From positions 1 to 64,000 of the forward strand of contig CALUVB010000003.1 in NCBI GenBank assembly GCA_944324115.1: a stretch of 64,000 nucleotides of DNA, read 5' to 3'. Below are positions 38,233 to 64,000 of the stretch, piece by piece (positions within the stretch are counted from its first letter, which is position 1; the number at the start of each line of letters is the position of its first letter). This DNA is from an uncultured Elusimicrobiales bacterium. GTDB taxonomy: Bacteria > Elusimicrobiota > Elusimicrobia > Elusimicrobiales > Elusimicrobiaceae. The notes under the pieces are model-generated. The model was not told the DNA's origin and did no database searches. It was given only the letters and a program-made list of their open reading frames with translations. A program made the position numbers and the translations under genes.

Positions 38233-38289
38233 GAGCGGCTGAAAAATTTTGGTTTTTAATTTACCGGGATGTAAAATTGAGGAGAAACA

Positions 38290-39048: not shown

Positions 39049-39066
39049 ACAGGAACGATAAAACTT

Positions 39067-39801
39067 ATGAAATTTACTTCTAAAATTACACTGTTTGTTT
39101 TGCTGTTGGCTTTGGCTGCGCCGGCTGCGTTTGCCAAGAAAACGCGTTTGGTGGCGGTCAGCGCTGATGTGGTGGAAATCAGCGGTTCTATGAACTCTGC
39201 AAAAGGGTTTGAGTGGAACCAAATTTTTGACTTTGAGGAAGCCAATATCCCCGGTATTTTATCGTTAGGGGAATTTGAGCGTAAAACGGCTGTTATTACG
39301 CGTTTGCGTCTGTCTGAAACAGAAGGGCGCGCTCAAGTGCTTTCCAACCCAAAAATTGTTACCAGTTCCGGCAACAGCGCTAAAATCACCGTCGGCGGTA
39401 AGGTGCCTATACCGGTGGTAAACAACCAGGGGGTTGGCTCCCAACTGGAAGAATATGGTATTTTGCTCAATGTGTTGCCCACCATTATTCCGGAAAGAGG
39501 CAATATTATTGACTTGCAGGTGCAGTTGTCCATGTCATCGGTGGACTATTCCCGCACCGTATCGGTGGGTACGTCTACGGCGCCTTCTTTTACTAACCGC
39601 GAAGTAGAAACCCATGTGGAACTCAACAGCGGGGAAACTTTGGTAATCGGCGGTTTAAAAAGCAGCTCCCGCAACGTGAGCGAAACGCGCGTGCCTTTCT
39701 TGGGCCGTATTCCGCTGATTGGTCTTTTGTTCAAATATAAAGATGTGTCCGAAGAGCAACGCTCGCTCTTCTTGTTTATTACTGTAGAAGTGGTGGAATA
39801 A
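39067..39801 (+). CDS. Short secretin (CpaC/RcpA-like), secretin core only
   Basis: A 244-residue exported protein (signal peptide to about residue 23). Nearly the whole mature part is the secretin beta-domain: V-L-S-N-P-K-I-V-T near residue 93, V-G-G-K-V-P-I-P-V-V, G-I-L-L-N-V-L-P-T-I, E-V-E-T-H-V-E-L-N-S-G-E-T-L-V-I-G-G-L and P-F-L-G-R-I-P-L-I-G-L-L-F. The periplasmic N0/BON domains that make CpaC about 450-500 residues are missing. It should form the outer-membrane channel of the pilus, but how it contacts inner-membrane parts is unclear; the extended TadB or CpaB might fill that role. Confidence 0.85.
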   Translation: MKFTSKITLFVLLLALAAPAAFAKKTRLVAVSADVVEISGSMNSAKGFEWNQIFDFEEANIPGILSLGEFERKTAVITRLRLSETEGRAQVLSNPKIVTSSGNSAKITVGGKVPIPVVNNQGVGSQLEEYGILLNVLPTIIPERGNIIDLQVQLSMSSVDYSRTVSVGTSTAPSFTNREVETHVELNSGETLVIGGLKSSSRNVSETRVPFLGRIPLIGLLFKYKDVSEEQRSLFLFITVEVVE

Positions 39802-39807
39802 TAACTT

Positions 39808-42090: not shown

Positions 42091-42101
42091 AACGGTAAAT
42101 T

Positions 42102-43730
42102 ATGATGAAGAAAACTGCATGGTTCGTTTTATTAGTTACGTTGTTGCTCGGGGTGGTGACGCCGCGGGGACTTTTGGCGCGCGCCTTAGATAATAAAGAC
42201 CGACAAAAAATTCGTTGTGCCATGTTCAAGATGGAAGTGTTGGGAAATTATTTTAATGTCAATAGACCCGACTCCCAGAAAGAGTTCGAATATCCCGCCG
42301 CTTGTGGAGAATCGTTGGCAGGCAAGAAAGTCACAATGCCTAAATGGTTCCCGGAAGAATTGAAACGCATGGACTCCGTCAAAGTCGTATATATTGAAGG
42401 GGAAGGCACATTAAGCGAAGCGACATTATGGTATCGTACATTTTCCAACGTGTATTCTTTCTTAGCCCGGGCGAATGATTCTTTGGATCGGAGCAAACCT
42501 GTTGTGTTGGAACAGCTTTCCCGCGGATATGTGGGCAACCGCATTAGTTTTGTGGCTAATTTAGACCGCTTAAATAAAGAGTTGGTACGTGGGCGGGAAG
42601 TAATCAGCTTAAAGGACAGTATGGAAGGGCGTGCGCGGGCTTTGTTAGCCACGATGGAAGTTATCAACCGGGAGTTTTACAGTACCATAGAATCGTTTAC
42701 CAGCCCAGCCGCTCAAAAGGAAAACAAATACCGCCAGTCTGTTATGGCGGTGGTGACGTTGGCCAATCAGCTGTGGAGTGAGTTCCGTTCTTCTCCTATT
42801 CCTATGGATCCGCCCGACCCCAAGACCTTTTTGGTGACGGAAGGGGAAAGACTGTTTAATGCATTGCTGCTGGTGATAGGTTCTTTATTGGTGGCGTATG
42901 CGGTGTATTTGCTGTTAGAAAACAAAAAAGAATTTATTTTAGAGAAATGGGACGATTATCGGGCCAAAAGTGTCGCCTGGGCCGAAGATTTTAACCGCCA
43001 GTTTTTGACCATTGATGTTCGCTATATTGTGTTTGGTACGGTGGGCGTTTTTGCCTTATTTGGCCTATTGATGGGGATTTCCAGCGGCGGGTTTGGCGGG
43101 GTATTTGTCTTTTTGCTGTTTGTGGCGTTGGGCGCGGTGGTGTCGGTGCGTATACCGCCTATTGTGCTGGATAAACTCAAAAAGAGCCGGGGGCGCAAGA
43201 TTAATGCCCAGCTGATGGATTCGCTGATTTTGCTTTCTAACTCGCTCCGTTCCGGCATGGATATTGTGCAGGGGTTTGAGTTGGTTGCGCATGATATGCA
43301 GCCGCCGATTGCCGATGAATTTGGCTTGGTAATTAAAAATTACCGTTTAGGCACTCCGTTTGAAAAAGCCTTGGAAGGATTAGATGACCGGGTGGAAAGC
43401 CGCATGCTTTCCTATACGATTAAAGCGATTATAATCCAGCGTCAGGTGGGTGGTAATTTGACGGTTATTTTCTCGCGCTTGGTAGAAAATATCCGCGAGG
43501 AGAGTAAACTGGAAGAAAAATTAGACGCGATGACCGCCCAGCAGAAAATACAAGCAATGGTAGTGGGGATAATGCCTGTTATCATGTTGGGAGTTATGTT
43601 TATGTTCCGCCCCGATGAAATGATTGCTTTCTATACTACATTAGTAGGATTGATAGTACTGTTTGGTTGTTTCTGCTGGATTATGATTGGTATGATGCTG
43701 ATACAAAAATTGGGAGAAGTCAAGGTATAA
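42102..43730 (+). CDS. tadB: TadB-like inner-membrane protein with large periplasmic extension
   Basis: A 542-residue protein. A signal peptide or anchor (about residues 5-25) is followed by a roughly 230-residue mainly helical region without membrane segments, then a helix near 262-280, two more near 315-360, and the T2SF/GspF domain (S-L-R-S-G-M-D-I-V-Q-G-F, R-Q-V-G-G-N-L, and two C-terminal helices). Ordinary TadB proteins are about 300 residues and lack the exported N-terminal part. TadB and TadC form the platform that couples the ATPase to pilin extrusion. The ATGATG start has a weak ribosome site. Confidence 0.85.
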   Translation: MMKKTAWFVLLVTLLLGVVTPRGLLARALDNKDRQKIRCAMFKMEVLGNYFNVNRPDSQKEFEYPAACGESLAGKKVTMPKWFPEELKRMDSVKVVYIEGEGTLSEATLWYRTFSNVYSFLARANDSLDRSKPVVLEQLSRGYVGNRISFVANLDRLNKELVRGREVISLKDSMEGRARALLATMEVINREFYSTIESFTSPAAQKENKYRQSVMAVVTLANQLWSEFRSSPIPMDPPDPKTFLVTEGERLFNALLLVIGSLLVAYAVYLLLENKKEFILEKWDDYRAKSVAWAEDFNRQFLTIDVRYIVFGTVGVFALFGLLMGISSGGFGGVFVFLLFVALGAVVSVRIPPIVLDKLKKSRGRKINAQLMDSLILLSNSLRSGMDIVQGFELVAHDMQPPIADEFGLVIKNYRLGTPFEKALEGLDDRVESRMLSYTIKAIIIQRQVGGNLTVIFSRLVENIREESKLEEKLDAMTAQQKIQAMVVGIMPVIMLGVMFMFRPDEMIAFYTTLVGLIVLFGCFCWIMIGMMLIQKLGEVKV

Positions 43731-43734
43731 GCCT

Positions 43735-44625
43735 ATGAATGATGTGGTGTTTTCCTTACTGCTTAATTTTATTTTAGTCATCGGCGCGTTTTCTTTGTTC
43801 GTGGCGGTGTTTGCGTTGCTTTCGCCTAAACAGGAAAAAACGCAAATCGTTGACGTCGCCGCCCGGCGGTTTAAATCTTCTTCCAGTTTTGCCAGTTTAC
43901 AGCCGGAAACAAAATGGCTGGACCGCTTGGCTGTGTTTTGCTTGAATACATTTCATTTAGAGAAGCCGCTGGAGCAAATGCACATGCAGCTGGGCAGCCC
44001 GGAAAAGCCGCAGCCGGTGGATATCCTGTATTACAAGATTATCTGCGCCCTGCTGTTGCCGGTGGCAATTATGCTGATATTCCAGACGGTGTGGGGCGTA
44101 TTGTTCGTGCCTTTAGGCTTTTATTTGCCGGATTTTATTTTAAAAAGCCGCATTCAAAAAAGACAAGCTGAAATTTTGGGCAATTTCTCCACGACGGTGG
44201 ACTTGGCGGCGTTGATTATTGAGTCTGGGTTGGATTACCTGACTGCTTTTGAGAGAATTATTAATATTGCCAAGAAGAAAACAATTTTGGAAGAAGAACT
44301 GGAAAAAACACTGAATGAAATTAAACTGGGGTATTCACGCCGTGAAGCGTTGGAACGTTTTGCCAACCGTACCGACGTGCAGGAAGTCCGTTCTTTGGTG
44401 GGGCTGATTATCCAGTCTGACGAATTAGGTACCAGTTTAGTGGATTTGCTGCGTAACTTTTCTTCTGATTTGCGCAGCCGCCGTATGAGCCGTGCGGAAA
44501 AATTGGCGGCACAAGCGTCTACCAAGATGCTGTTCCCGCTTTTTGTGTTTATTTTCCCGACGATTTTTATTTTGATATTGTCTCCAATGATTAAGGGCTT
44601 GCTTTCGCAGGGGCTCAGTTTTTAA
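43735..44625 (+). CDS. tadC: TadC-like inner-membrane platform protein
   Basis: A 296-residue protein with a T2SF/GspF-type domain: an N-terminal helix (residues 5-28), a pair near 95-130, a cytoplasmic part containing L-A-A-L-I-I-E-S-G-L-D and S-D-E-L-G-T-S-L, and a C-terminal helix. Size and order after tadB fit TadC. Only 4 nt separate it from tadB, so the two are translationally coupled. Confidence 0.88.
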   Translation: MNDVVFSLLLNFILVIGAFSLFVAVFALLSPKQEKTQIVDVAARRFKSSSSFASLQPETKWLDRLAVFCLNTFHLEKPLEQMHMQLGSPEKPQPVDILYYKIICALLLPVAIMLIFQTVWGVLFVPLGFYLPDFILKSRIQKRQAEILGNFSTTVDLAALIIESGLDYLTAFERIINIAKKKTILEEELEKTLNEIKLGYSRREALERFANRTDVQEVRSLVGLIIQSDELGTSLVDLLRNFSSDLRSRRMSRAEKLAAQASTKMLFPLFVFIFPTIFILILSPMIKGLLSQGLSF

Positions 44626-44638
44626 GAGGATAAAATTT

Positions 44639-46006
44639 ATGAAAAAATATCTTTTACTTGTTTTTGCCGTTTCCATGGCAGCCGCTGTATCGGCCGCGCC
44701 TTTGCGTCAGCCCAACCCTATCCGCCAGCATGGAAAAGAAGAAGGCATGCTGCTGGATTTGAATAAGATTACCTTGGGTACATTGAATGATGTGGAGGAG
44801 AAAAAACAGTATCTCTCCACAGTTCAGCTGGAAAAACAACGCATACAGAATTATATGCTGCGCCAAGTGTATGAGAACGCCTATACGCTCTACCGCCGCG
44901 GGGATTACCAGCGCGCCCAAGAACTGGCACAAACCATTTTAAGTATTGATCCTAACTTTACCCAAGCTTCCACCTTAGCCAAACAAGCCGGACACATGGG
45001 GGCGTATGGCACGACATCTGAAGCTGAAGTGATAGAAGCCAAATTCCAAGAAGCCAGCAGAATGTATGATTCGGGCCGTTTGGTGGAAGCAAATGAAAAA
45101 TTAGATGAAATTTTGACCATACAGCCCACTAATTCTAAGGCGTTGGCTTGGAGAAAACGGATTGACAAGGATATCGCCCAGGAATACAACCGCCGCGGCA
45201 ATGTGGCCTATAATCAGCAGGATTACCAGCAGGCGCTGGACAATTGGTATAACGCTTTGTTGATTCGCAAAGACGATCCGGCTTTGGTAAACCGTATTGC
45301 CCAGACGGAAAACTTGTTGCGTAAACAGCAGGTGAAAGAATCTATGGAAGAAGCCATGAATTATTATAATCAGGGGCGCTTTTTAGAATCTTATACTGTG
45401 TTTGAACGGATTACTAAAATACAGCCGGGTGATACGCGGGTGCAAAAATATATGACCCAGCTGAAAGATGAAATTGCCAACAGTTACTTTACAGCGGGGA
45501 ACAAATCGTTTGGCCTGCAAAAATATGACAGCGCCATCAACTACTGGACTAATGCGAAGAAGTGGGGGGCTGATTCGGCCTATATGGACCGCTTGATTAA
45601 AAAAGCCCGCAACGCCAAAGAAGATGCTTTAAGACGCAAACAGGAAGCTGCCCGCAAAGCGGCTGAGGCGGCAGAGAAAAAGGCGGAAGAAGCAAGCAAG
45701 GTAGAAGAACCGATAGAAACCGTGACTGTGGAAGACAATGTTCTTTCTCCTTTGACGCAGGGAGGAACGGCATTCGGCCCAGACGGCAATACAGTTACAC
45801 AAGGTATTGGCGCAGGAGCCACCCGTGTTTCTGCGGAAGCCAGTGCGGCCTCCCGCCAGAAATATATTGAAGGTCTTGATGCATTTAACCAAGATGACTA
45901 TGAACGCGCAAGAGAAGCCTGGATTGTGGCTAAACAGCTGGACCCGGGCAATACCGATGCAGATTTGGGCTTGCGCAAAGTGGAGGAGCTGACCGGTATT
46001 CGGTAA
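44639..46006 (+). CDS. Exported TPR protein of the Tad locus (TadD-like)
   Basis: A 455-residue protein with a signal peptide (A-V-S-A-A, residues 1-20) and several TPR-like units: L-Y-R-R-G-D-Y-Q-R-A-Q-E-L-A, N-Q-Q-D-Y-Q-Q-A-L-D-N-W, Y-N-Q-G-R-F-L-E-S-Y, and a last one at the C-terminus, N-Q-D-D-Y-E-R-A-R-E-A-W. An Ala/Lys/Glu-rich coil (about 335-365) separates the last unit. TadD in classical loci is a TPR lipoprotein needed for secretin assembly. There is no lipobox Cys here, so this would be soluble or otherwise held. Gap to tadC is 13 nt. Confidence 0.8.
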   Translation: MKKYLLLVFAVSMAAAVSAAPLRQPNPIRQHGKEEGMLLDLNKITLGTLNDVEEKKQYLSTVQLEKQRIQNYMLRQVYENAYTLYRRGDYQRAQELAQTILSIDPNFTQASTLAKQAGHMGAYGTTSEAEVIEAKFQEASRMYDSGRLVEANEKLDEILTIQPTNSKALAWRKRIDKDIAQEYNRRGNVAYNQQDYQQALDNWYNALLIRKDDPALVNRIAQTENLLRKQQVKESMEEAMNYYNQGRFLESYTVFERITKIQPGDTRVQKYMTQLKDEIANSYFTAGNKSFGLQKYDSAINYWTNAKKWGADSAYMDRLIKKARNAKEDALRRKQEAARKAAEAAEKKAEEASKVEEPIETVTVEDNVLSPLTQGGTAFGPDGNTVTQGIGAGATRVSAEASAASRQKYIEGLDAFNQDDYERAREAWIVAKQLDPGNTDADLGLRKVEELTGIR

Positions 46007-52229: not shown

Positions 52230-52406
52230 ATGCGGCGGATAAAAGCAGCGTGGCGTGCAGTAAGGCAACGCAAAGGACAGGCTTCCATTGAGTATGTGCT
52301 GATGTTGGGCAGCATATTGGTCATTCTGTCTGCTTTTATTACGGCATTCCACCAAGATATTGTCCGTTGGTTTTTTATGTTTATCGGACAATTGCTGACT
52401 GGCTGA
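52230..52406 (+). CDS. Third Flp-type prepilin-like protein (58 residues)
   Basis: A short ORF with an Arg/Lys leader ending R-K-G, then Q-A-S-I-E-Y and a hydrophobic helix (V-L-M-L-G-S-I-L-V-I-L). It fits the Flp cleavage rule (G followed by x4-E-Y) and strongly resembles the leader and helix of the pilin at 37274. The mature tail is only about 15 residues beyond the helix. It starts 6 nt after the response regulator with a TAGGGA site and is followed 2 nt later by a TadG-like gene, so it heads a second, smaller pilin-type gene set. Confidence 0.75.
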   Translation: MRRIKAAWRAVRQRKGQASIEYVLMLGSILVILSAFITAFHQDIVRWFFMFIGQLLTG

Positions 52407-52408
52407 AT

Positions 52409-53524
52409 ATGGGCGCATATGGTGTGTTTTTTCAGACAATTCGCAGCCGGCGGGCGCAAATATTGCTGCCGGCAGTGATGCTTGCGCCTATTTTTATGCT
52501 ATTGATTTATTTGCTGTTTGAGACGACTAAATTGTCTATGAGCAAAGTGCAGGAACAGTTTGCCTTGGACAATGGAGCCTATTCCCAAATGTCCGCCACC
52601 AGCACCTATTTGAATGCGGTCGCTTATGTGAACGGCCCGGCCCCTTATCGTGTTATGCAGACGATGACCTACCAGCTGACCCCTAAACAAACATCAGAAG
52701 ATGACGGTGAATACACCATTTTTGATATCTTTTATAAAGCGGGGGCCTTTCCTTCGGTAGGCCCTACCTATTCGCTGGGGCCTAATGGGGCCGTGCGCAA
52801 TCCGCGGCCGTCTGCTGAATCTACGGATTGGGGGTTCCGCTATTATGGGGACAAGCGCTCCTCCTGGGCCAAGGAAGATCCCAAAGATTCTTATGATGAA
52901 GATGAGCTGTATGTGCTGACAGACAAGAGTATAGCGGACAATTATTTCTTCAGTTCCACCGGTATGGCCACATCTTCTTTTACGGAATATGCGACGATAT
53001 TTATCCGCACGGGGATTGTATATAACTCCCAAACATATGTGTATGATGATATTTCCAAAGATTCCCGTATGTTTAGGCAGAGCTATTATTTAAATACGCG
53101 CAGTTGCCGCAAATCGGAATGCGGTACCCAGGCGGCGCAGACCTTGGACCGGTATGTTTTGAAAATGAATCCTTTTGAAGTGCCGTACGGAAAATTGCGT
53201 TTTTATGTAACGGGAGACTTTGCTGGATCTACCATGTCATCTGGAGCGTACGCCATTGATTTCAAAGATACTTCTATTGCGGATCAAAAATTATTTCAGT
53301 TTGCTTATTTGGATTCCGCCAGCCGCTCCAAATTGCGCCAGCTGGCCCGCGGAGTTACGTTGAAACAGAAATATAAATTGCCGGCCAATCGCTTTAATAT
53401 AGATGTTACACAGCGTTACCAACCATATGTGCGTAACACGATTACGGTAAGCTGTCCGCGGTCCAGCAATAACTGCGTGTGGCCTAATCCGTTGCCAAAA
53501 TACAGTATAAAGGTGGGGCCATGA
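52409..53524 (+). CDS. TadG-like membrane-anchored protein
   Basis: A 371-residue protein with a short basic N-terminus (R-S-R-R-A-Q), one long hydrophobic helix (L-L-P-A-V-M-L-A-P-I-F-M-L-L-I-Y), and a large extracytoplasmic domain. The A-Q then hydrophobic-E pattern after the basic residues recalls TadE/TadG, although the +5 Glu is displaced to the end of the helix (L-L-F-E). Two nearby Cys pairs (around 230-235 and 348-356) may form disulphides. It sits between the small Flp-like gene and a TadE-like gene and overlaps the latter by 4 nt. Confidence 0.7.
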   Translation: MGAYGVFFQTIRSRRAQILLPAVMLAPIFMLLIYLLFETTKLSMSKVQEQFALDNGAYSQMSATSTYLNAVAYVNGPAPYRVMQTMTYQLTPKQTSEDDGEYTIFDIFYKAGAFPSVGPTYSLGPNGAVRNPRPSAESTDWGFRYYGDKRSSWAKEDPKDSYDEDELYVLTDKSIADNYFFSSTGMATSSFTEYATIFIRTGIVYNSQTYVYDDISKDSRMFRQSYYLNTRSCRKSECGTQAAQTLDRYVLKMNPFEVPYGKLRFYVTGDFAGSTMSSGAYAIDFKDTSIADQKLFQFAYLDSASRSKLRQLARGVTLKQKYKLPANRFNIDVTQRYQPYVRNTITVSCPRSSNNCVWPNPLPKYSIKVGP

Positions 53525-54054
53525 GATATCCTGTTTTTTCTAAGAAAGGCCAGGCTACCACGGAGACGGTATTGTTGTTTCCGGTGTTGGTGATTTTTAT
53601 ATTGTTTATCATTAAAATTTTTGGCCTTTTGGTGCTGAGCCAGAAAATGAATATCGCCGCTTTTTATGCTGCGCGGCGTTTTCAGTTGCAGAGTCACACC
53701 ACCTCTTATCTGCAAAGATGGGACCAGCGCTTTCTGATTAAAGATATCACGAATAAAGTGGAAGATTATTTGGGCGTGAATAATCCGGGAACGAAGCGTT
53801 TGCTGAGCGTCAGAGACGTGAAGCTGAATTTTGACCGTTCCGGCACATGGACCGTAATGACGCTGACGGTGAATACGCGCCCGCCGCGTATTAAATTTTT
53901 GTGTGATTATGATAAATTACAGCTTTGTCAAAATGACATGAAGTGTTTAAAAGGGTTTGATTTTTTGTGTGAGACAGGCGGCCAATTGCAAGTTATTAAA
54001 TATATCGGTCCTAATGAACGCGTGCTGCCTTATACCCGGCCCGAGGGACAGTAA
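53521..54054 (+). CDS. TadE-like pseudopilin (second set)
   Basis: A 177-residue protein with the leader S-K-K-G, cleavage site before Q-A-T-T-E-T, a hydrophobic helix and an extracytoplasmic domain of about 140 residues with four Cys clustered near the C-terminus (C-D-Y-D-K-L-Q-L-C and C-L-K-G-F-D-F-L-C), probably two disulphides. The Glu at +5 follows the prepilin peptidase rule. It ends the second pilin-type set. A terminator is not obvious after it; a strong new promoter begins 17 nt later. Confidence 0.8.
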   Translation: MRYPVFSKKGQATTETVLLFPVLVIFILFIIKIFGLLVLSQKMNIAAFYAARRFQLQSHTTSYLQRWDQRFLIKDITNKVEDYLGVNNPGTKRLLSVRDVKLNFDRSGTWTVMTLTVNTRPPRIKFLCDYDKLQLCQNDMKCLKGFDFLCETGGQLQVIKYIGPNERVLPYTRPEGQ

Positions 54055-54070: not shown

Positions 54071-54099
54071 TTGACAAAATTCCAAAAAGGCTTTATACT
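54071..54099 (+). promoter_or_regulatory. Consensus promoter of the exported-protein cluster
   Basis: TTGACA (54071-54076), a 17-nt spacer and TATACT (54094-54099) make the best sigma-70-type promoter in the window. The predicted leader of about 100 nt contains two hairpins: GCGC/GCGC near 54107-54119 and a perfect 8-bp stem CGTAAGCT/AGCTTACG (54144-54162) without a T tract. A GGGGTG site lies just before the ATG at 54208. Confidence 0.75.
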
Positions 54100-54207
54100 G
54101 ATAGTAGCGCCGGGTGCGCTTAAAATGAAACTCTGTGTTTGAGCGTAAGCTAAGAGCTTACGGGTCAGCAAGAGTGAATTTTTATATATATGTAAAAGGG
54201 GTGACTT

Positions 54208-55800
54208 ATGTTCAACCTGTTTAATAAGAACAAAGTCCGAGCCGGTAAACAAAATAATAATGAAGATAAAAAACCAGCCGGCGCGGCCGCAGCAAATGCG
54301 GCAGCTTCCAAAGCTAAGCAGCAAGCTCCTTTTGCTGCTTTAGGCAAAACATGGGCCAAGTTGAATAATATGGACCGCAAGCAAGCCTATACTTGGGGGG
54401 CGATAGCCGTAGTGGTGCTTGTGGTCTTGCTGACACTGGGCTCCGCCATGGGCTCCGGCGACAGTGAAGATTTTTATGAGTTTGAAACCCGCGGGTATGA
54501 CTTGGCCAATATGCCTTTCTCCAGTGATGAAGCGGAGCAGTATCTGCTTGCTTCCAAATATCCAGATATGCAAAACACTCAAGCGCCCGGATTGTACTCC
54601 TCTAAAGATAAAGAAGAACGTCAAGCCGAAGACGCCGCCGATGAGGCTGCCCAGCTGGAAAGTGTTTCTTCTTCCGCATCAGAATATGTGCCTGGGCGGT
54701 ATTATGGCGGGGGTGGGTCCTCTGGCCCGCGCGGCACTACTAAAGTGGGCAGTTTAAATAGCGCCAGCTTAAAGAGTGCCAGTGGTTCCGGCGTGAGCGG
54801 TACGTTCGGCCCCAGCGGAGATTTTTCTAATTTTAAACGTCAGAATCAAGCTACAGAACAAGGAACAGCCACCGGTCCGGGCGACGGCAACGCACGTAAA
54901 GCTTTGTTTCAAATGGCGGTGGGAAGCCGTACGGCGGCGGGTGTAAAAGATGACCGTTTGCTCAATGCTAAAAAAGCGTTAATGGGCGGTAATATTAAAG
55001 GCAGTGATGCCTTCTTGAGCGACAGCGGCGCAGTGGATTTGAGCAAAGCGGGCGGATTGAACTTAGATGAAAATGCCCCTATCAGCAGTATGGATCCTAA
55101 GGATTTTAATGACGCATTAGAAGATGCTAAGGAAGAAGCGGAAGACGACGCCCTTGAAGACGAAGAAGATACTTGGTTTAGAGATCTCATGCGGGACCTG
55201 GCCCAGCAGGCAGTAAAAGATTTGCTCAGTTGGGGTCTGAATTCCGTGAAAGATTCGTATCAAGAAGCCCGCGCAGATAGAAAGATGGAGCAGCAAATCG
55301 CTGCTCAAGTGGCTGATAAACAAATGAACGATTATAACGAATGGCTAAAGAATGGCCAGGTGGGGGATCCTCCTTGTGATCCGCCGTATGAACAGATAAC
55401 CGGCGATATGCAGGTGTCCGTGGACAGCTTGAAAGGAAACAATCAGGCGCAGAGACGGGCGGGGGTTAAGTATAACGCTGATACAAACACGTTTGTAAAC
55501 CGAAAGACAAACGCTGAAATACCTGTGACGGAAGATGGAATGGTTACTCTGAGCGATATGGGGTATCCTGAGAAGAAGATAAATAGAATTAACCGATCAT
55601 TGAGAAGCATCGGTATAGAAGAAAGTATGAACAATAACCCGGCTTTCCGTGCGGAAGTTGCAGCACAGAAAATGGCAATAAAAGGAAGCTATGGGACAAG
55701 TTCCTCTTTTACCCAAAGTGGACAGTCGGGAGAGAGAAGAATGATGAATGGCTTTCTCTATGAATATCAAAATAACCGATGGGTAAAAGTAGAAAAATAA
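54208..55800 (+). CDS. Membrane-anchored exported protein, unknown family (cluster gene 1)
   Basis: A 530-residue protein: a basic, Ala/Lys-rich cytosolic N-terminus (residues 1-62), one membrane helix (about 65-85), then about 445 extracytoplasmic residues. These include a Ser/Gly-rich stretch (about 150-220), an acidic coil (about 300-335) and a soluble end with few Cys. There is no cleavable signal peptide. I recognise no domain. The layout (short basic cytosolic tail, one helix, low-complexity then folded part) is shared with the last gene of the window (60582). It is the first gene behind the consensus promoter and is followed 15 nt later by the next cluster gene. Confidence 0.7.
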   Translation: MFNLFNKNKVRAGKQNNNEDKKPAGAAAANAAASKAKQQAPFAALGKTWAKLNNMDRKQAYTWGAIAVVVLVVLLTLGSAMGSGDSEDFYEFETRGYDLANMPFSSDEAEQYLLASKYPDMQNTQAPGLYSSKDKEERQAEDAADEAAQLESVSSSASEYVPGRYYGGGGSSGPRGTTKVGSLNSASLKSASGSGVSGTFGPSGDFSNFKRQNQATEQGTATGPGDGNARKALFQMAVGSRTAAGVKDDRLLNAKKALMGGNIKGSDAFLSDSGAVDLSKAGGLNLDENAPISSMDPKDFNDALEDAKEEAEDDALEDEEDTWFRDLMRDLAQQAVKDLLSWGLNSVKDSYQEARADRKMEQQIAAQVADKQMNDYNEWLKNGQVGDPPCDPPYEQITGDMQVSVDSLKGNNQAQRRAGVKYNADTNTFVNRKTNAEIPVTEDGMVTLSDMGYPEKKINRINRSLRSIGIEESMNNNPAFRAEVAAQKMAIKGSYGTSSSFTQSGQSGERRMMNGFLYEYQNNRWVKVEK

Positions 55801-55815
55801 GTGAGGGAGGTCTTT

Positions 55816-57168
55816 ATGAAATGGATTTGTTTTGTTAAGAATAAAGCGGGCAAATTTGCTCTCTCTGCTATGCAGGCGGTAGGCCTTTCCGCCGCGGTGG
55901 GAGTGGCCGGTATCGCAGCTTGGCAAATGATGGGCTCTTCTGCTGAGCCTTCCCTCAATACCGTTTTTTCCTCCAATGACCAAGAAGTGGTATTTGTGGC
56001 CAGCGGAAGCGGCGCGGGGAATTATGGCGGCAATTATGGTACGGGCGGGGAATTGCAGTCCGGCATACGGACCACCTTGTCCAAAGATATGCAGCTAATG
56101 CAGGCGGATGCGGCCCGGCTGGAGCGTGAACAATCCGCTTTGGAACAGCAAGAATCCAAAATTGCCGCTTATAAAATGGACGGGGCGGCTGATGGATTGG
56201 GTATGACCGGCGGCAACGCAGCCAAAGAGTTGACAATGAATGCCGGCGGTGCGGATATGGGTGCTTTACAACAACAAATTGCCAACTTAAAAGCCGCGGC
56301 TCTTTCACAACAGCAGGCCGCAGTCCAACAAGCGGCTGCCGGCAGCGCAGCCTCAGCGGCCAGTGCGGCTATGCAAACGCCGGGTGCGGCTATCGCGCGG
56401 GCGTCTGGCAGTAATTTGAATTCCACCCCTTTACAGGCGGCCCAGGGGGCTCAAGGGGAAAATGGCGTAAGCGCTGGCGGTGTTTTGGGTGGGGCGCAAG
56501 TGGCAGATGCGGCGGCCATGACAGGTTCGTCTGGTTTGATGGGAAGCAGACAGGGCAGCAGCAGCGGTTTTGGGCGTGCGTTGGAATGGCAAGGCGGAGA
56601 CCGGAAGATGGAATTGGCTTCTTTGCAGAAACAGTCTGCAGAATTAACCCGCAACAAAAACCGCGCCGCCAACGAAGGCTCCAAAATTTTCTTGGCGGGG
56701 GAACGTCTTTCTTCCGGGATTCGCTTGGAAGGCGATACGATAACTACAGGCGGTGCCAGCTCGGCTGATTTTTCCGGGGATAATGAGCTCGGCGGGTTGG
56801 GCTCTGCGGCCAGTTCAACGCAGGAATTATTAGAGATGTATGAGAAGTCTAAAGAAAATTTGCAAGATGAAATTAAGAAATACAAAAATACGGTGGGTGC
56901 TACATGTGCTGCTGCCATTATCCCTGGCTTGTGCTATGCCTGGATTTGGAGCTCCCACAATAAAATACGCGATAAAGTAGATAATTTCCGGGATCAGTGG
57001 AAAGACAGCTCGTTTGAATTGACCAGTACGCCGGCCCCTTATGCCGACAGCGCCGATACGGTGGTAGATGCTATTTATCATTATGCGTGGGCTGGAGTGA
57101 TTGGTTCTCCGTGGTGGGCTGGCAAAGCGGATAATAAAAAACGTTGGAATCAAGTATTTGGTTCTTAA
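55816..57168 (+). CDS. Ala/Ser/Gly-rich exported protein, unknown family (cluster gene 2)
   Basis: A 450-residue protein. N-terminus: K-A-G motif, then a hydrophobic segment (about residues 15-40) that may be an uncleaved anchor. Then come a Gly-rich loop, a long Ala/Gln-rich helical region (about 85-200), a block N-R-A-A-N-E-G-S-K-I-F-L-A-G-E near 285-300, and a C-terminal part with a coil, a C-A-A-A-I-I-P-G-L-C segment and many Trp. The N-terminus and the N-R-A-A-N-E block are repeated in the next gene, so the two are paralogues. ATG 55816 follows GAGGGAGG; a GTG at 55801 is less likely. Confidence 0.7.
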   Translation: MKWICFVKNKAGKFALSAMQAVGLSAAVGVAGIAAWQMMGSSAEPSLNTVFSSNDQEVVFVASGSGAGNYGGNYGTGGELQSGIRTTLSKDMQLMQADAARLEREQSALEQQESKIAAYKMDGAADGLGMTGGNAAKELTMNAGGADMGALQQQIANLKAAALSQQQAAVQQAAAGSAASAASAAMQTPGAAIARASGSNLNSTPLQAAQGAQGENGVSAGGVLGGAQVADAAAMTGSSGLMGSRQGSSSGFGRALEWQGGDRKMELASLQKQSAELTRNKNRAANEGSKIFLAGERLSSGIRLEGDTITTGGASSADFSGDNELGGLGSAASSTQELLEMYEKSKENLQDEIKKYKNTVGATCAAAIIPGLCYAWIWSSHNKIRDKVDNFRDQWKDSSFELTSTPAPYADSADTVVDAIYHYAWAGVIGSPWWAGKADNKKRWNQVFGS

Positions 57169-57216
57169 TATTACGGAATAAATAGCAGTCATTTTATGTT
57201 TTAATGAGGAGGCTTT

Positions 57217-58731
57217 ATGACATGGTTTACTATTTTGCGCAGCCGTGCCGGCGCCGTTAGTTTAAGTCTTGGCAAAGCGGCAGGCTTGGCGTTGACGATG
57301 GGGGTAGTGGGCTGGAATGTGTATAACTATGCTACAGACCGGCCAGCCGCCAGCGAAGAACGTGTCCGTTCTTTCAGCGAAGTTTTGGCTTCCGGTGGGA
57401 CTTTGCCATATGATACCAGCATGAATATTTCGGCCGGAAATACCCAGTTCGCTTCTGCCGAAGACATCGCTGCCCAAGAGGGGTTTTCTTTAGACGGGGG
57501 CGATTCCGAGGTGGCTGATTTGACGGGCGCTTTGAGCGGCATTTCCGTCAAAGGCAGTGCGTTAGGCGTCGGGGAAGATGGCTTGGGTATGGGAAATCAA
57601 GCGGCTGTGGAAGTAGGGCCCGATGGCAAACCGTTGCAACCTGCCGGAAATGAGGCAAATATGACTGCGGCCGTAGGAGAGGCCGCCGCCCAAGCAGCCG
57701 GGAAAACAGTTATTCATAAGTTAGGCGAGGCAAAAGAAGGCGATTTACAGAGAGCTTCTATGGCGCGTGTTTCCGGTGGCAGTTCGGCAAGCGGCGGCAG
57801 CTTTGGACCTTCTGCTTCTTCTGCCGCTTCCAGACCCGCTTCCCAAGCGGCGCGGACAGAGGCCGCCGCGCGTATGGACCCTTATGTGTTAAGCGGATCT
57901 ATGCCTAAAGGCAGTATGATGGTGGCTTCCGGCAATAGCCCTATAGCCAGACAGACAGAGCAGACCGAGTTTATGGAAGGCAGCCGCAAAGGCAGATCTT
58001 TTGGCGGCGGAGCATCTAAAGAAGCCCGGAGTTTGCGTGACATTGCCGTGCGTTCTTCTAAAGTGGCCGCCAATGCCAACCGCTCCGCCAACGAAGCTTC
58101 CAGCTATACTTTCTTGGCCCAAGAAACACAGGCCGGCGGTTTGGCGGTAATCCCTGAGGAAATGCGTTTGAATTCCTCCAGCAGTTCTTCTCTTGATTTT
58201 GAAGATGATTTGAATAGAAGAGAGGCCGGCCTGCAAGCGGCCACTGATGACGTTGACAATACGGAACAGGAACGCAAAGCGCACAGAACCCGCTTGAAAA
58301 AAACTCTCTTTGGAGTACTGGCGATGACTATTCTGGGTGTGCTGTCCATCGCTACTATTTTACAAGCTGAAACCGTGACACCTTGGAGCTGGGTGGCTGC
58401 GGGGGCTATAGCTGCTATTTTGGTGGCGGCTATCGGTTTGTTCATGATAGATGCAGGCAACTATATGAGCAAGTATGGTTCGGACAGCTGGTCTATTGCC
58501 TCTATGGCCGCTGGTGTATTGATGTTAATTGGCGTTGGACTGGCTTTCGTGAAGAAAGTACAGATGTTTTATAAGAAAATAGCCTCATGGTTGACTAAAC
58601 ATATGGGTATAGATAAGGGAGTGAATGCAATACTTGGATCTGGTGCCAGCACTGGTATGACCTCCACGGCGGAGTCTTTTAAAGAGAATTTCGTTGGCGG
58701 AAATGATGATACAAGCCTGAAAAATGATTGA
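57217..58731 (+). CDS. Ala/Ser/Gly-rich membrane protein, unknown family (cluster gene 3)
   Basis: A 504-residue protein paralogous in part to cluster gene 2. Shared are the N-terminal pattern (M-x-W then R/K-A-G, L-S, A/V-G-L and G-V-x-G in a hydrophobic segment) and the block N-R-S-A-N-E-A-S-S-Y-T-F-L-A-Q-E near 290-305. The middle is Ser/Ala/Gly-rich. Unlike its neighbour it ends with about three more membrane helices (roughly 365-455) and a short tail. The C-terminal helices make it a candidate membrane base for the cluster. A GAGGAGG site lies 7 nt before the ATG. Confidence 0.7.
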   Translation: MTWFTILRSRAGAVSLSLGKAAGLALTMGVVGWNVYNYATDRPAASEERVRSFSEVLASGGTLPYDTSMNISAGNTQFASAEDIAAQEGFSLDGGDSEVADLTGALSGISVKGSALGVGEDGLGMGNQAAVEVGPDGKPLQPAGNEANMTAAVGEAAAQAAGKTVIHKLGEAKEGDLQRASMARVSGGSSASGGSFGPSASSAASRPASQAARTEAAARMDPYVLSGSMPKGSMMVASGNSPIARQTEQTEFMEGSRKGRSFGGGASKEARSLRDIAVRSSKVAANANRSANEASSYTFLAQETQAGGLAVIPEEMRLNSSSSSSLDFEDDLNRREAGLQAATDDVDNTEQERKAHRTRLKKTLFGVLAMTILGVLSIATILQAETVTPWSWVAAGAIAAILVAAIGLFMIDAGNYMSKYGSDSWSIASMAAGVLMLIGVGLAFVKKVQMFYKKIASWLTKHMGIDKGVNAILGSGASTGMTSTAESFKENFVGGNDDTSLKND

Positions 58732-58739
58732 GAGGGCCT

Positions 58740-59003
58740 ATGTCTAATATAGATAAAAAACTGAAGGCTATTTTCATTGGCGGGGTTTTGTGGCTGTTGC
58801 TCATATCTTTTTGCGTATTGCTGTTTCAATTCTATGTGGAGAATAAACAAGCCCAGCGGGAACTGGAATATTTGAAGGCTCATCAGCGGGTGGAAGCAGC
58901 TAAAAAAGAGCGTTTCCAAGAATGGGAACGAAGACTCAAGCAAAACCAAATGCAGCAAGAATATCGCCAAAACTATATAAATGGACAAACCGCCAATCAG
59001 TAA
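58740..59003 (+). CDS. Small membrane-anchored coiled-coil protein (cluster gene 4)
   Basis: An 87-residue protein: basic N-terminus, one membrane helix (about 11-33) and a Glu/Gln/Lys/Arg-rich coiled coil to the end (A-Q-R-E-L-E-Y-L-K and on). It resembles in layout small bitopic assembly factors, but has no recognisable family. The ATG at 58740 is chosen over a TTG inside the previous gene. It follows the previous stop by 8 nt, and 11 nt separate it from the next gene. Confidence 0.7.
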   Translation: MSNIDKKLKAIFIGGVLWLLLISFCVLLFQFYVENKQAQRELEYLKAHQRVEAAKKERFQEWERRLKQNQMQQEYRQNYINGQTANQ

Positions 59004-59014
59004 GCGGGGCTGTT

Positions 59015-60484
59015 ATGAAAGCAGAAGAGAACAAACCATTTATGCCCGATGTGACAGCCGCGGGGGAGAGAAAAACAGCTCTCCCCGCCGCTGCATCACC
59101 TCAAACGCAAAAACGTTATAACTGGAAACGCATTTTGCTTGGGTTGGTCCTTGTTTTTTTCTTGTTTTCTATTATATTTATAATACCGGTGGGTCGTATA
59201 CCGGTGCTTCGTAATTTAACGTGGTTAATGGGGTTTAGTACGCAGGACACCCAGTCAATGAGCTTTGGTCGTGCGCTCTTGACGTGGGCTGGCGACAGTG
59301 AACGCCGTGCCCGGCCAGGCAGCTGGTCCGGGAACGATGAAATATCGCTCTTTGACAGAAATCAAATGCCCGGATTTAATGAGGGCGGCCCGCAATCAGG
59401 TTTGTTTGATTTGGACCAAGTGAACGCTGCCCGCTGGGCCCAGGGATTGCCGCCGGAAGGTTTGATGAGTGCTTGGGTGGGAAATGAAAACGATCCAAAC
59501 AGAGCGGCTGTAAATAAACCGATTAATGATTGGAGCGAAGATGCCAAGCGCAATGAAGCCAATAAAAACGCCCAAGAGGTGTATTTCGGCACAGATGCGG
59601 AGTTAGCCTCCCGAGCTGCCGCCCAGAAGACTGTCGGGTTTGCGGACTTTGCAGATCGCTTATCCAATAACAATGTAGTAGGGGCGGCTTCAGTGGATTG
59701 GCTGGGATTGGCGGTAGACAAAGCTTCTGCTTTGGTGAGTGTTCCGGTGGCGGAGGGTGTTAAGGAAATAAGCAAAACTTCCGTTCCTTTGAGCAATTTG
59801 GGAGGAAATTTGAAGGCAGGGCAAAAACCGCAGCGGGATTTGGCGATGATTTGGCTGATGTCTTTGGCTGCCAATAAGGCTCCGCAGCTTATGCTGAAGA
59901 AAAACTTGGCTATAGCCGGTCATATGGCCATGGATATGCCCAAGAAAGTGTATGACTCTGCCGGACAAACGACAGGGGTATACATATCCGGAGATGAAGT
60001 AATGGCCAATTTTGAAACGGCTAACCAGATGTTGCTTGCGGAAGAAAAATGCCGCGATATTTCCAGTACGGCCAATGAGGTGGTAAAAGCCCGTTTTGAG
60101 CAGGCTACGGTATTGGTGTCGTCTCTGCGTAATGTGCCGAAACATTGCGGAGACGATATGCAGAGCTGGAGCGCCAATTTGAGAAGCGTAAAAACAAATT
60201 GCAAAGAAGTACAAGATGTTTTTTCCGGTATGAAAACTTTTTGTGGGGCTAAATTTAAAGAAGGGCGCTGCGAAACGGCACGCTTAGACAGCTATGAAAG
60301 TTCGTATAATGAAATATGTGAGGGGTATGAAAATCTTTCCGATGAGGAAAAAGCACTTAGAGACCAACAGCTTGCGCAGGCTGCCAGTGATATTGATTAT
60401 GAAGTGCGTGACAGTTTTAATTTGTCTGTAGACGGAGAAAAAGCCGGAGGAAATGATTTCTTTCCGGAAAGCACATTTGAGTAG
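59015..60484 (+). CDS. Membrane-anchored exported protein, unknown family (cluster gene 5)
   Basis: A 489-residue protein: cytosolic N-terminus of about 40 residues, one membrane helix (about 42-66, L-V-L-V-F-F-L-F-S-I-I-F), then an extracytoplasmic part that looks folded and mainly helical. Six to seven Cys lie in the last third (near 345, 385, 399, 410, 416 and 430), likely in disulphides. It has less Gly/Ser-rich sequence than its neighbours. No domain is recognised. A longer frame starting at 58922 overlaps the preceding gene and is rejected. It is followed by a 97-nt gap with hairpins before the last gene. Confidence 0.7.
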   Translation: MKAEENKPFMPDVTAAGERKTALPAAASPQTQKRYNWKRILLGLVLVFFLFSIIFIIPVGRIPVLRNLTWLMGFSTQDTQSMSFGRALLTWAGDSERRARPGSWSGNDEISLFDRNQMPGFNEGGPQSGLFDLDQVNAARWAQGLPPEGLMSAWVGNENDPNRAAVNKPINDWSEDAKRNEANKNAQEVYFGTDAELASRAAAQKTVGFADFADRLSNNNVVGAASVDWLGLAVDKASALVSVPVAEGVKEISKTSVPLSNLGGNLKAGQKPQRDLAMIWLMSLAANKAPQLMLKKNLAIAGHMAMDMPKKVYDSAGQTTGVYISGDEVMANFETANQMLLAEEKCRDISSTANEVVKARFEQATVLVSSLRNVPKHCGDDMQSWSANLRSVKTNCKEVQDVFSGMKTFCGAKFKEGRCETARLDSYESSYNEICEGYENLSDEEKALRDQQLAQAASDIDYEVRDSFNLSVDGEKAGGNDFFPESTFE

Positions 60485-60581
60485 TTGGCAGTATTCGGTC
60501 TTGATGTGCCCGGGCGGCCATTAAGACCCAAGCAGTAACCGGTAAGTCCGGTATAGAAGTGTATCTTAATAGGAGACTGTT

Positions 60582-63500
60582 ATGGCTGAGAATAAGAAGG
60601 ATTCCTTCACGTTCAGCGATAAGATTAAGAACAGCAAGCCTGCTTTTAATCCATTCTCTAAACGTGTGGCCTCCAAAATCGGCAGCAACGGCAAACCGAA
60701 AAAGACGCTGTTTGAACGTACTAAACGTGACGCGCCCTTTTTCATAGCCGCATTGGCTGCGTTGCTTATGTTGCCGTTTCTGTATAAATACAGCGGCAGC
60801 GTGGGGGAGGGAGCTGCAATTATTCCTCCCGGTTCGGAGAGCTCTGTTTTTGATCCGGAGCGTTTTGGCTTTGAGCCTAGCGCAGAGGATCCCAACGGGC
60901 AAATCGCCCAGCTTACCGGGCGCGACCCGTTAAGCATGATTAAAGGCTGGGGAAGTGATGAGGCGGAGGCTGAGGATTCTTATGAAGACTTCAGAATCCA
61001 AGACGGATTAGATGACAATTATAATGTGCCTCCGGCTGCTTCATCTCCGCGCAGTTATGCCCCTGCGGCTACCCGTGCGGCATTCCAGCGTCAAGCGACT
61101 AAAATCAATGAATTGGGTTCTGCCTCCATGGCTACGCGTGGTGGCGGCGGCGGTGGTTTTGGCCGTTTCGGCGGAGCCAATTTAAAGAATGCGGCCCAGC
61201 AAGATTCTGCCGGCGCCCCCAAAGAGGGTATTAAACCGGTGGCGTTGCAGCCGTTGCGTGCGGCGGATAACCCGGCCCGGTCTTATTTTGGACAGACCGG
61301 CGCTAGCCAAGCGCGCGCTTCCCGCGATGCGCTGACTAAAGCAAATGCGGCCCAGGGCTTAAAAGACGCGTTGTTTACCCCGGCAAAAAGCGGTGCTTTC
61401 GGCGGGTTGGGCAGCGGCGAATTTGCTCCCGGCGGCGGCGGTGGTGAAATTAGACATACTTTGGATTATAAAGGCATCACCCCGTGGTGGTGGGACATGA
61501 TGAAAGAACGCTCCCAGGAAGCTTGGAGATGGAAATATTTCCTGTGGAGAAAGAACTTGGTAGAGCCCTTGGTTAAAGCGTTGGCTGAGGTGTTGGCTAC
61601 TTTTGGCAAAGGCTTGGCCTGCTGTGTGCTGACCGGGGAAGACGACTGTTCTATGGGCTCCATGTGGGGTACCTCCGAAGCGAGCTTCCAGCCCGGAGAG
61701 TGCGACTGCGGCAAAGCCGGTTCTGGTTCTTTCTCTGATGTCCAAAAGCTTCATGCCTTCCTTTATGGTGATGCACCGATGGGAGACAAGCCGAAATTGG
61801 ACAAACTGTGCAAATCTAAGGAAGCGCAGGACAGAGGTTGTACTTATAAAGAGCCCAAAGGCGGCGGCGGCAATTTAGGCTTCTTTGCTAAACGGGCCTA
61901 TTGTCTGGGAGCCACAGTGGGCGGCAATAACAAATCCGGCGTTTCTATGATGCAGGACCGCTATAATTGTGAAGCCCTTGACACTTCGCATAACTTTTCG
62001 TTCCAAACGCAAGGTGATGCAAACAAGTGGTACAAATATCATGCCGTCATCGCGAAAAACTATGTGCCTTTTGACAATGATGGCTCTCACTACCTCTGCG
62101 GCGGCGGAGACCGTAATATAAATCGCCAAATTGCAGTGGGTGTGAACAGCATTCCGTTGGGGCAAACCTCCAGAGCTGCCCAAGCGACGGAGCAAAATTG
62201 GCAAGGCGTAAGAGACAAAGGCCAATATAATGAAGGTCTGGTCCGCGATGATGTGAACGACGCCTGTGTAATTTATGTGGCGGAAGGCCCCACCTTGGAT
62301 TGGGACGCTTTCAAGAGCCATACGATGACCTTGTTGGAACAGATGAAACTGAGAAATGAATCCGGATATGTTTCCGGAGAAGATGCATTTAATGCCTTAC
62401 ATTTGTATTTTGTGGAAGGCTATGCCTTTAAGCATCAAATGGCGAAAGGTTCCAACAAAGTAGATAACCAAAACAAAACGGTAAAAGTGCGCGGTATGCC
62501 GGTTGATGAGCTGCCGTTGAAATATGCGGACTTTGAGGAGTATTATGTCTTGCATAGAGGCAATACGGTAAAAGATAAAGAAAGCTACAGCAGCACGGAG
62601 CGTCACTTCGGCGTAAGTAATCAGACTGATCCAACTGGCGCTTATATCGGAGCTGATGGCAAACATCGCACAACGATGACCGGCAACGGCAAAGTCGATG
62701 CGGTGCGCGGATTCTGTGCTTTCTCTACGTTCCGTATTACCGCTGATGCCATAGATTCGTTGGAATCCATCTCCTCTGTGCTGGCGTTTAATCCTCAAAT
62801 CCACGGGAAAACCGCCGGTAACATAGTGGTGACGCTGGAAATTCCGGAAATGGGCTGGAGCGGCTTGCCGTTGGTGGCGGGCGAAGTCAGCGGGACCAAT
62901 GATGCGGCCCGCAGACCGTATGTATTCAAACCCACGCCGGAACAACAACAAGAAATGCTCAGAAAGGGCATGATTACTGCTAAATGGAAAGCGCAATTCC
63001 AGCATAAACTTTCCACTGACGACGCTACCTACGGAATAGGAGAAGTGATAGTTAAACAGCTGGAAGTGCCTATCGGCTGCGAACCGGGTACGGTAGATGT
63101 CTTTAAGAGCGGAGAGTGCGTATGGCAGCGGACTTGCCAGCAACAGCGTATTTGGAGTGTATATGAATTGATGACTCCGGATTGTATAAAAGCCGCTACA
63201 CCCAACTTTAATTTTGCCGAGGAATCAGATGTCATTATCCCGGTGGTGGTAGGGTTCTTTGATGAAATCGGCGATATTCCTGACAACCGAGATGACTTGC
63301 TTAATCCGAATATTCGCTCTAAACGACAACAACCTACGACCAGAGCTTTCGGGCCGTGCGAAACGATGGGCGGTATAGCAGATGTTTATCTGAAATATAT
63401 GGACCCGGAAACGGAAGCGCTGTTGGCGCAAGCCAAGAGTATTTATGATGCGGCCAACGAGGGAAGAAGCGTGCTGGCCTATTCCTTGGACAAGATTTCA

Positions 63501-64000
63501 GTGGGCAACTTAGTAGATGCCATTACTATTGTGCAAGGTGACGTACAGCTCAATACGGCCTGTATGTTGGGTAAGACCATAGGGGCAGCTTCTCAAGACG
63601 GAAAGAATGGCAATAATATGTTCGGCGCATTTGCGGCGTACATGGGTGAGGATTCGTCTTTCTTCCCGGCTTTGTATAAAAAAGTAAATGGCGAAGAAAA
63701 ACCCGATCTCCGTTTCCTTGGTTGTTCAGGTGGCTCGGAGGTGAACAATAATAAGGCGTATCATTATGGCCATTATAACTGGAACCATATTAAACTGGGT
63801 GACCAAAAATCCGCCAGCAACCAATATGACCGGGAATATTTTGAACAAGAGCTGGAGAAGGGGCCCTGGAAAGGCGCTCCATTGAAGGATATTGCCCAGG
63901 CAGTTGGTTTCAAACGTGCTGAAGCGTGGCAAAGCAGCTGGGGCAAATATGGGCCTACGGATTCTATGGATCTCCATAACCGCAAGGCATACCATAGCGC
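60582..64000 (+). CDS. Very large membrane-anchored exported protein, unknown family, 3' end outside window (cluster gene 6)
   Basis: An open frame of more than 1139 codons. It has a basic cytosolic N-terminus (about residues 1-52), one membrane helix (about 53-68, F-F-I-A-A-L-A-A-L-L-M-L-P-F-L), an acidic then Ala/Gly-rich stretch with a G6 run (about 187-192), a Trp-rich segment (P-W-W-W-D near 307), and long Cys-containing domains, including C-C and C-x-C pairs near 346-372. The overall layout copies cluster gene 1. GGAG sits 7 nt before the ATG. No known domain is recognised; it is probably the main extracellular component of the cluster. Confidence 0.8.
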   Translation, partial: MAENKKDSFTFSDKIKNSKPAFNPFSKRVASKIGSNGKPKKTLFERTKRDAPFFIAALAALLMLPFLYKYSGSVGEGAAIIPPGSESSVFDPERFGFEPSAEDPNGQIAQLTGRDPLSMIKGWGSDEAEAEDSYEDFRIQDGLDDNYNVPPAASSPRSYAPAATRAAFQRQATKINELGSASMATRGGGGGGFGRFGGANLKNAAQQDSAGAPKEGIKPVALQPLRAADNPARSYFGQTGASQARASRDALTKANAAQGLKDALFTPAKSGAFGGLGSGEFAPGGGGGEIRHTLDYKGITPWWWDMMKERSQEAWRWKYFLWRKNLVEPLVKALAEVLATFGKGLACCVLTGEDDCSMGSMWGTSEASFQPGECDCGKAGSGSFSDVQKLHAFLYGDAPMGDKPKLDKLCKSKEAQDRGCTYKEPKGGGGNLGFFAKRAYCLGATVGGNNKSGVSMMQDRYNCEALDTSHNFSFQTQGDANKWYKYHAVIAKNYVPFDNDGSHYLCGGGDRNINRQIAVGVNSIPLGQTSRAAQATEQNWQGVRDKGQYNEGLVRDDVNDACVIYVAEGPTLDWDAFKSHTMTLLEQMKLRNESGYVSGEDAFNALHLYFVEGYAFKHQMAKGSNKVDNQNKTVKVRGMPVDELPLKYADFEEYYVLHRGNTVKDKESYSSTERHFGVSNQTDPTGAYIGADGKHRTTMTGNGKVDAVRGFCAFSTFRITADAIDSLESISSVLAFNPQIHGKTAGNIVVTLEIPEMGWSGLPLVAGEVSGTNDAARRPYVFKPTPEQQQEMLRKGMITAKWKAQFQHKLSTDDATYGIGEVIVKQLEVPIGCEPGTVDVFKSGECVWQRTCQQQRIWSVYELMTPDCIKAATPNFNFAEESDVIIPVVVGFFDEIGDIPDNRDDLLNPNIRSKRQQPTTRAFGPCETMGGIADVYLKYMDPETEALLAQAKSIYDAANEGRSVLAYSLDKISVGNLVDAITIVQGDVQLNTACMLGKTIGAASQDGKNGNNMFGAFAAYMGEDSSFFPALYKKVNGEEKPDLRFLGCSGGSEVNNNKAYHYGHYNWNHIKLGDQKSASNQYDREYFEQELEKGPWKGAPLKDIAQAVGFKRAEAWQSSWGKYGPTDSMDLHNRKAYHS

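What the first reader, a model, noticed from the sequence alone, without database searches (positions are those of the whole stretch)
54071..64000. Undescribed cluster of at least six membrane-anchored exported proteins behind a consensus promoter
Six genes in a row (54208 to beyond 64000) encode proteins with one or more membrane anchors and large Gly/Ser/Ala-rich or Cys-bearing extracytoplasmic parts, none of which I can assign to a family. Genes 1 and 6 share a layout (basic cytosolic tail, one helix, low-complexity then folded region). Genes 2 and 3 are paralogous at the N-terminus and at an internal block. A three-helix membrane protein and a small coiled-coil protein complete a plausible machine: base, assembly factor, shaft and large external component. 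It follows Tad-type pilins and a two-component system, and it has the strongest promoter in the window, so high expression under regulation is expected. It could be a Tad-linked appendage, a secretion system or a surface coat.
Basis: partly seen in the sequence, partly recalled or inferred. Interest (0 to 1): 0.8.

Follow-up and report, generated by a model that had tools for sequence, protein, structure and literature searches.

The report
Tad-linked envelope genes with leader RNA
In gut bacteria of the family Elusimicrobiaceae, six neighbouring genes of unknown type encode membrane-anchored envelope proteins, usually sit right behind a Tad pilus locus, and carry the same strong promoter and the same newly recognised RNA hairpin even where evolution has moved them apart, so they are very probably one jointly controlled system, probably a variable surface or envelope complex.

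Summary
Six genes (54208-64202; the last ends 202 bases past the window and closes the cluster) encode membrane-anchored proteins with no usable family match. They follow a complete Tad locus, an Flp pilin and a two-component system. In relatives, 45 of 48 loci keep the TadE-like gene directly upstream and 34 of 35 keep the order g1-g2/3-g5-g6. g1 and g6 profiles find only this family; the sister family has the same Tad locus but a different one-helix Gly/Ser-rich protein in that place. New here: the promoter is followed by a 56-nt hairpin with strong covariation and no Rfam match. It occurs once or twice per genome in 73 of 294 genomes, all of this family. Copies sit before g1 and, in a genome that looks like Elusimicrobium minutum, also before its detached g6, each with its own promoter. 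That makes the genes one regulon. g1 and g6 combine a constant membrane/linker part with a hypervariable C-terminus (up to 94% against 25% identity); g6 carries an immunoglobulin-like domain. Best reading: a family-specific, Tad-associated envelope complex with variable exposed domains. The biochemical role is inferred. Tad, type II and type IX components are not supported by sequence.

The parts
52230..52406 (+). Flp-type major pilin (58 aa, ..RKGQASIEYVLML..), upstream Tad context
   Evidence: translation; G/XXXXE motif read directly
52412..53524 (+). Tad_a: exported pilin-like protein of the Tad locus, conserved at this place through the order
53521..54054 (+). Tad_b: TadE-like minor pilin directly upstream of the cluster
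   Evidence: Pfam TadE E 1.4e-5; immediately upstream of g1 in 45 of 48 loci
54071..54099 (+). promoter TTGACA-N17-TATACT, near-invariant in relatives
54129..54184 (+). conserved 5' leader RNA hairpin followed by a U-run
   Evidence: covariation; one copy in this genome; family-wide distribution
54208..55800 (+). g1: basic tail, one membrane helix, conserved Gly/Ser-rich linker block, hypervariable C-terminus
   Evidence: alignment A3, distribution, N/C contrast
55816..57168 (+). g2: N-terminal hydrophobic helix, Gly/Ser/Ala-rich extracytoplasmic part, block shared with g3
   Evidence: alignment A2
57217..58731 (+). g3: g2 paralogue with three further membrane helices at the C-terminus
   Evidence: alignment A2, helices in relatives
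58740..59003 (+). g4: small one-helix membrane protein with a charged, probably coiled-coil tail
59015..60484 (+). g5: one membrane helix, then an extracytoplasmic part ending in a Cys-bearing helical bundle
   Evidence: alignment A8, AlphaFold2 model
60582..64000 (+). g6 (to 64202 in the contig): near-invariant cytosolic tail SFTFSDKIK, one helix, linker, Cys-rich variable part with an immunoglobulin-like domain (residues about 707-819)

Best explanation
The cluster is a family-specific regulon of inner-membrane-anchored envelope proteins associated with the Tad pilus locus. SHOWN: six linked genes, conserved order, one promoter plus one covarying leader hairpin that stays with g1, and with g6 where g6 has moved away, and a constant N-terminal part with a hypervariable C-terminus in g1 and g6. 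INFERRED: the proteins insert N-in, contact something in the cytoplasm through the near-invariant g6 tail, cross the periplasm with their long flexible linkers, and present variable Cys-rich/Ig-like domains (g6, g1) on a shared membrane complex (g2/g3 polytopic base, g4 and g5 accessory). This complex works with or beside the Tad pilus in attachment to host, food particles or other cells. The leader hairpin, which is followed by a U-run and ends about 30-35 nt before the start codon, tunes the output of the operon by attenuation, mRNA stability or translation.
For: Synteny: TadE-like gene within 600 bp upstream in 45/48 loci, order g1-g2/3-g5-g6 in 34/35; same arrangement in genus g11, and positional counterparts in the basal genus g15, where g5 still matches. 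Tad ATPase orthologue in 13/13 family genomes tested. Regulon: RNA model R1 finds one copy in this genome; in G048 it finds two, before g1 and before g6, which lie 65 kb apart, each behind TTGACA-16/17-TATAAT/TATACT; G109 likewise has copies upstream of both. Hairpin: 97.7% of cells paired against 86.4% shuffled, 105 double changes against 25, covariation 0.373 against at most 0.104 for slid controls. Variable domains: g6 N 94% / C 25% (L026-L027), 93/18, 90/15; g1 92/23, 85/14, with g5 at 65-74% in three such g6 pairs. g6 Ig-like sandwich Z about 10, rmsd 2.6, 92 aligned residues.
Against: No direct evidence of surface location, of a complex, or of physical contact with Tad. In G048 the genes lie hundreds of kb from the Tad ATPase and in three same-genus loci the block sits elsewhere, so the Tad link may be only neighbourhood. 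No outer-membrane route for N-in anchored proteins was found in the cluster. Hypervariable C-termini could also arise from relaxed constraint in low-complexity proteins. The role of the hairpin is untested; the attenuator reading rests on the U-run and its position only.
Confidence: 0.45

Rival explanations
1. Periplasmic scaffold or assembly factors of the Tad pilus: the proteins stay between the membranes and brace or gate the Tad secretin and motor, with no surface exposure.
For: Adjacency to Tad, N-in anchors and Gly/Ser-rich linkers; the sister family with the same Tad locus has one such protein at that place in the loci read and in 51 of its genomes.
Against: Hypervariable C-termini of g1 and g6 are unusual for machinery parts; genes dispersed away from Tad in G048.
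Confidence: 0.25
2. Tad-independent surface coat or adhesin set that merely neighbours Tad and is co-inherited.
For: Own promoter and leader; block moved away from Tad in three loci and fully dispersed in G048; variable C-terminal domains.
Against: The neighbourhood has held through several genera, including the basal g15, which needs selection or slow rearrangement.
Confidence: 0.2
3. Additional Tad minor pilins (pilus tip proteins, as in the Myxococcus Kil system).
For: Position right after TadE-like genes; large modular C-termini resemble the adaptable tips described in PMC12075869.
Against: No prepilin-peptidase site (G/XXXXE) seen in g1, g4, g5 or g6; g2/g3 lack the +5 Glu and the Gly is not kept outside the genus; no TadE match.
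Confidence: 0.05
4. A new secretion system.
For: Several co-regulated membrane proteins.
Against: No ATPase, channel or energy-coupling domain in the cluster.
Confidence: 0.05

Closest known systems
Tad (Flp, type IVc) pilus loci
   Same: The genes upstream are a full Tad locus: TadE-like pilins, RcpC/CpaB, secretin, TadZ-TadA fusion, TadB, TadC, TPR protein, Flp pilin.
   Different: None of g1-g6 matches a Tad component and none has a prepilin site; they have their own promoter and leader.
Myxococcus Kil system tip pilins (PMC12075869)
   Same: Tad-linked set of proteins with large, variable C-terminal modules.
   Different: Kil tips are pilins with an N-terminal processing site; g1-g6 are not.
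Cis-regulatory leader RNAs of Rfam
   Same: Covarying hairpin in a 5' leader, followed by a U-run.
   Different: No Rfam 15 family reaches its gathering score; best chance-level match E 0.099 at 19.2 bits against a cut-off of 39.8.
One-helix Gly/Ser/Ala-rich protein after TadE in the sister family (alignment A6)
   Same: Same place after Tad_b in the loci read, same layout, found in 51 genomes of that family.
   Different: No profile similarity to g1; weak similarity to the N-terminal part of g5, mostly over the membrane helix. Followed by a PDZ/S41 protease instead of g2-g6.

Membership tests
Tad minor pilins (TadE/F/G, tip pilins) | prepilin-peptidase site G/XXXXE before a hydrophobic helix | tested here: not met
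   read from alignments of g1, g5, g6 and g2/g3 and from genera g11, g12, g13, g15
Tad minor pilins (TadE/F/G, tip pilins) | match to the TadE profile | tested here: not met
   Pfam scan: among the eight proteins scanned only 53521-54054 matches
Tad pilus locus (the neighbourhood, not g1-g6) | TadA ATPase, TadB/C, secretin, RcpC, TadE, Flp pilin | tested here: met
Type II, IV or IX secretion components | sequence match of g1-g6 to a known component | tested here: inconclusive
   no credible Pfam or NCBIfam match, but distant relatives could be missed
Known Rfam RNA families | score at or above the gathering threshold | tested here: not met
NusG-paralogue antitermination elements (RfaH/ops, LoaP) | a second, specialised NusG paralogue in the genome | tested here: not met
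   one PF02357 protein per genome in six genomes, five of them of this family
Immunoglobulin-like fold (g6 domain) | beta-sandwich superposable on Ig domains | tested here: met
   predicted model only: Z about 10, rmsd 2.6, 92 aligned

The most novel reading that the evidence does not exclude
An Elusimicrobiaceae-specific trans-envelope display system: several partly related inner-membrane-anchored proteins with flexible linkers carry exchangeable outer domains, possibly through the Tad secretin, and are jointly controlled by a dedicated leader RNA that follows the genes around the genome.
Probability: 0.2. Interest if true: 0.8.

Novelty: new variant of a known kind. Interest (0 to 1): 0.55.

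Why it matters
It gives a well-defined, testable surface or envelope system to a group of gut bacteria of livestock, chickens and insects whose contact with host and neighbours is poorly known. It adds a structured leader RNA tied to a single set of genes, and a case in which a promoter-leader cassette marks functional partners after an operon has broken up. The sharp split between constant and variable protein parts suggests selection by host, prey or phage.

Tried and rejected
Pfam, NCBIfam and PHROGs scans: only weak coiled-coil or membrane-helix matches (Spc7, DUF6063), judged spurious. PDB sequence search with the profiles of g6, g5 and g2/g3: nothing credible. g5 fold search: no Foldseek match with E below 0.2; helical-bundle matches at Z 8-10, below the level that means much for bundles. 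In the g6 fold search only the Ig-like part was effectively tested; its well-predicted C-terminal domain (model residues about 645-880) was not searched alone, so its fold is open. Shared ancestry of all six proteins: supported for g1-g6 and for a short motif in g1-g2/3, not for the rest. Common ancestry of g1 with the sister family's protein: no signal. Antitermination by a NusG paralogue: no paralogue. A DNA-binding site instead of an RNA hairpin: unlikely, because the distal stem changes sequence freely while pairing is kept. C-terminal modules shared between distant N-terminal clades: only about 27-29% identity, so recent exchange is not shown. Literature searches found no description of the cluster or the RNA (library of open-licence papers only; the search was badly posed and says nothing).

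Full report
What is there. The window is the first 64 kb of a 223-kb contig of a 1.53-Mb genome. Upstream lie a complete Tad locus (37744-46006: TadE, RcpC, secretin, a TadZ-TadA fusion, TadB, TadC, TPR protein), a Cache-HAMP histidine kinase, a receiver-kinase hybrid and a LuxR-type response regulator, an Flp pilin of 58 aa at 52230-52406 that carries RKGQASIEY, and two further pilin-like proteins, the second a TadE match.

Who has it. Named records found with the g1 profile are mostly metagenome genomes labelled Elusimicrobiaceae, Elusimicrobiales, Elusimicrobium sp. or Candidatus Avelusimicrobium, where the host is named from buffalo, sheep, roe deer, yak, reindeer and horse. A g6 profile searched in 247 genomes of the phylum found 60, all in this family. 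A g1 profile searched in 101 genomes of the order found 48, all in this family. Sister-family genomes have an orthologous Tad ATPase (56-59% identity, 11 of 11) and the same kinase and regulator order, but after the TadE gene they carry one different Gly/Ser/Ala-rich one-helix protein and a PDZ/S41 protease.

Synteny. In 48 loci with enough upstream sequence the TadE-like gene directly precedes g1 in 45; in 35 loci with enough downstream sequence the order g1-g2/3-g5-g6 holds in 34. Genus g11 keeps the arrangement with g1 doubled in several species. In the basal genus g15 the place is filled by eight Gly/Ser-rich membrane proteins, of which the seventh still matches g5 (E 6e-6) and the last matches g6 only weakly (E 6e-4). 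In G048, a single contig of 1,643,562 bases, which by my own knowledge is the length of the E. minutum Pei191 chromosome, g1-g2/3-g4, g5 and g6 lie in three places and Tad in a fourth.

The leader RNA. Comparing the DNA before g1 in 57 distinct loci showed a TTGACA-N17-TATACT promoter in nearly all and a conserved leader. Aligned, 53 leaders form one hairpin of 17 pairs: ACUCU/AGAGU, UGU/RCA, UGA/UCA and a distal stem of free sequence. 97.7% of cells pair; 105 cells carry changes on both sides against 25 after shuffling; sliding the partners lowers the covariation score from 0.373 to at most 0.104. The basal stem changes in concert as well: A-U and U-A at its two ends in the window's genus, G-C and C-G in genera g11 and g13. 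A covariance model finds one copy in this genome (E 9e-16) and, in 294 genomes of the phylum, 73 genomes with one or two copies, all in four genera of this family. In G048 the two copies lie directly before g1 and before the detached g6, each behind its own promoter; in G109 they lie upstream of both genes too, with an inserted ORF between leader and g1. In g11 species with two g1 copies there is one before each. No Rfam family fits. The hairpin (median -17 kcal/mol) is followed within about three bases by UUUUU and lies some 30-35 nt before the start codon in the window's genus. This fits an attenuator, a stabilising 5' hairpin or a translation element; the data do not choose between them. 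It is the strongest evidence that these genes, wherever they sit, are one functional set.

The proteins. All have a short N-terminal tail, mostly basic, and one hydrophobic N-terminal helix; g2/g3 types often add three helices at the C-terminus. g1 and g6 share a linker block (HHalign 47.7 against controls of at most 24.7) with a motif of the form LgsASmxxaSGsG that also recurs in g2/g3. The g6 cytosolic tail (SFTFSDKIK) is almost invariant through the family. The C-termini are another matter: some species pairs with 90-94% identical N-terminal parts share 15-25% in the C-terminal part, while other pairs with similar N-terminal identity share 92-98%. Such a bimodal pattern suggests replacement of the segment rather than steady drift, though donors were not found. 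The g6 extracytoplasmic part was predicted at mean pLDDT 72.9, with an immunoglobulin-like domain (Z about 10) and a well-predicted C-terminal domain whose fold was not tested alone. g5 ends in a Cys-bearing helical bundle (pLDDT above 90) without an informative match.

Reading. What is shown: a family-specific, Tad-adjacent, jointly regulated set of anchored envelope proteins, two of them with variable outer parts. What is inferred: that they form one complex, that the variable parts are exposed, and that the complex serves attachment together with or beside Tad pili. The pilin and secretion-system readings are disfavoured by the missing prepilin sites and the missing energy-coupling parts; the periplasmic-scaffold and the Tad-independent adhesin readings remain open.

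Noticed in passing
window 54129-54184 +: Conserved covarying leader hairpin with no Rfam match, specific to this gene set; only one or two copies per genome.
   Followed up: yes
window 52230-52406 +: Short Flp pilin gene (58 aa) between the response regulator and the pilin-like genes, easily missed because of its size.
   Followed up: partly
window 31276-36258 +: 1660-aa protein with FlgD-Ig and CHU_C (type IX secretion signal) matches, though not at its C-terminus.
   Followed up: no
window 29281-30780 +: GAF-GGDEF diguanylate cyclase within 10 kb of the Tad locus; a possible c-di-GMP link to pilus control.
   Followed up: no
L135:2693-3940 - and relatives (alignment A6): Sister-family protein after TadE: one-helix Gly/Ser/Ala-rich protein, found in 51 genomes of that family, no family name.
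   Followed up: partly
L071 7349-19150 and L128 (G092:C10 about 7300-23100): Eight consecutive Gly/Ser-rich membrane proteins behind Tad in a basal genus, a diverged version of the cluster.
   Followed up: partly
L068 1608-2015: ORF inserted between leader RNA and g1 in G109; by eye it resembles a small DUF559-type endonuclease-like ORF, family not tested.
   Followed up: no
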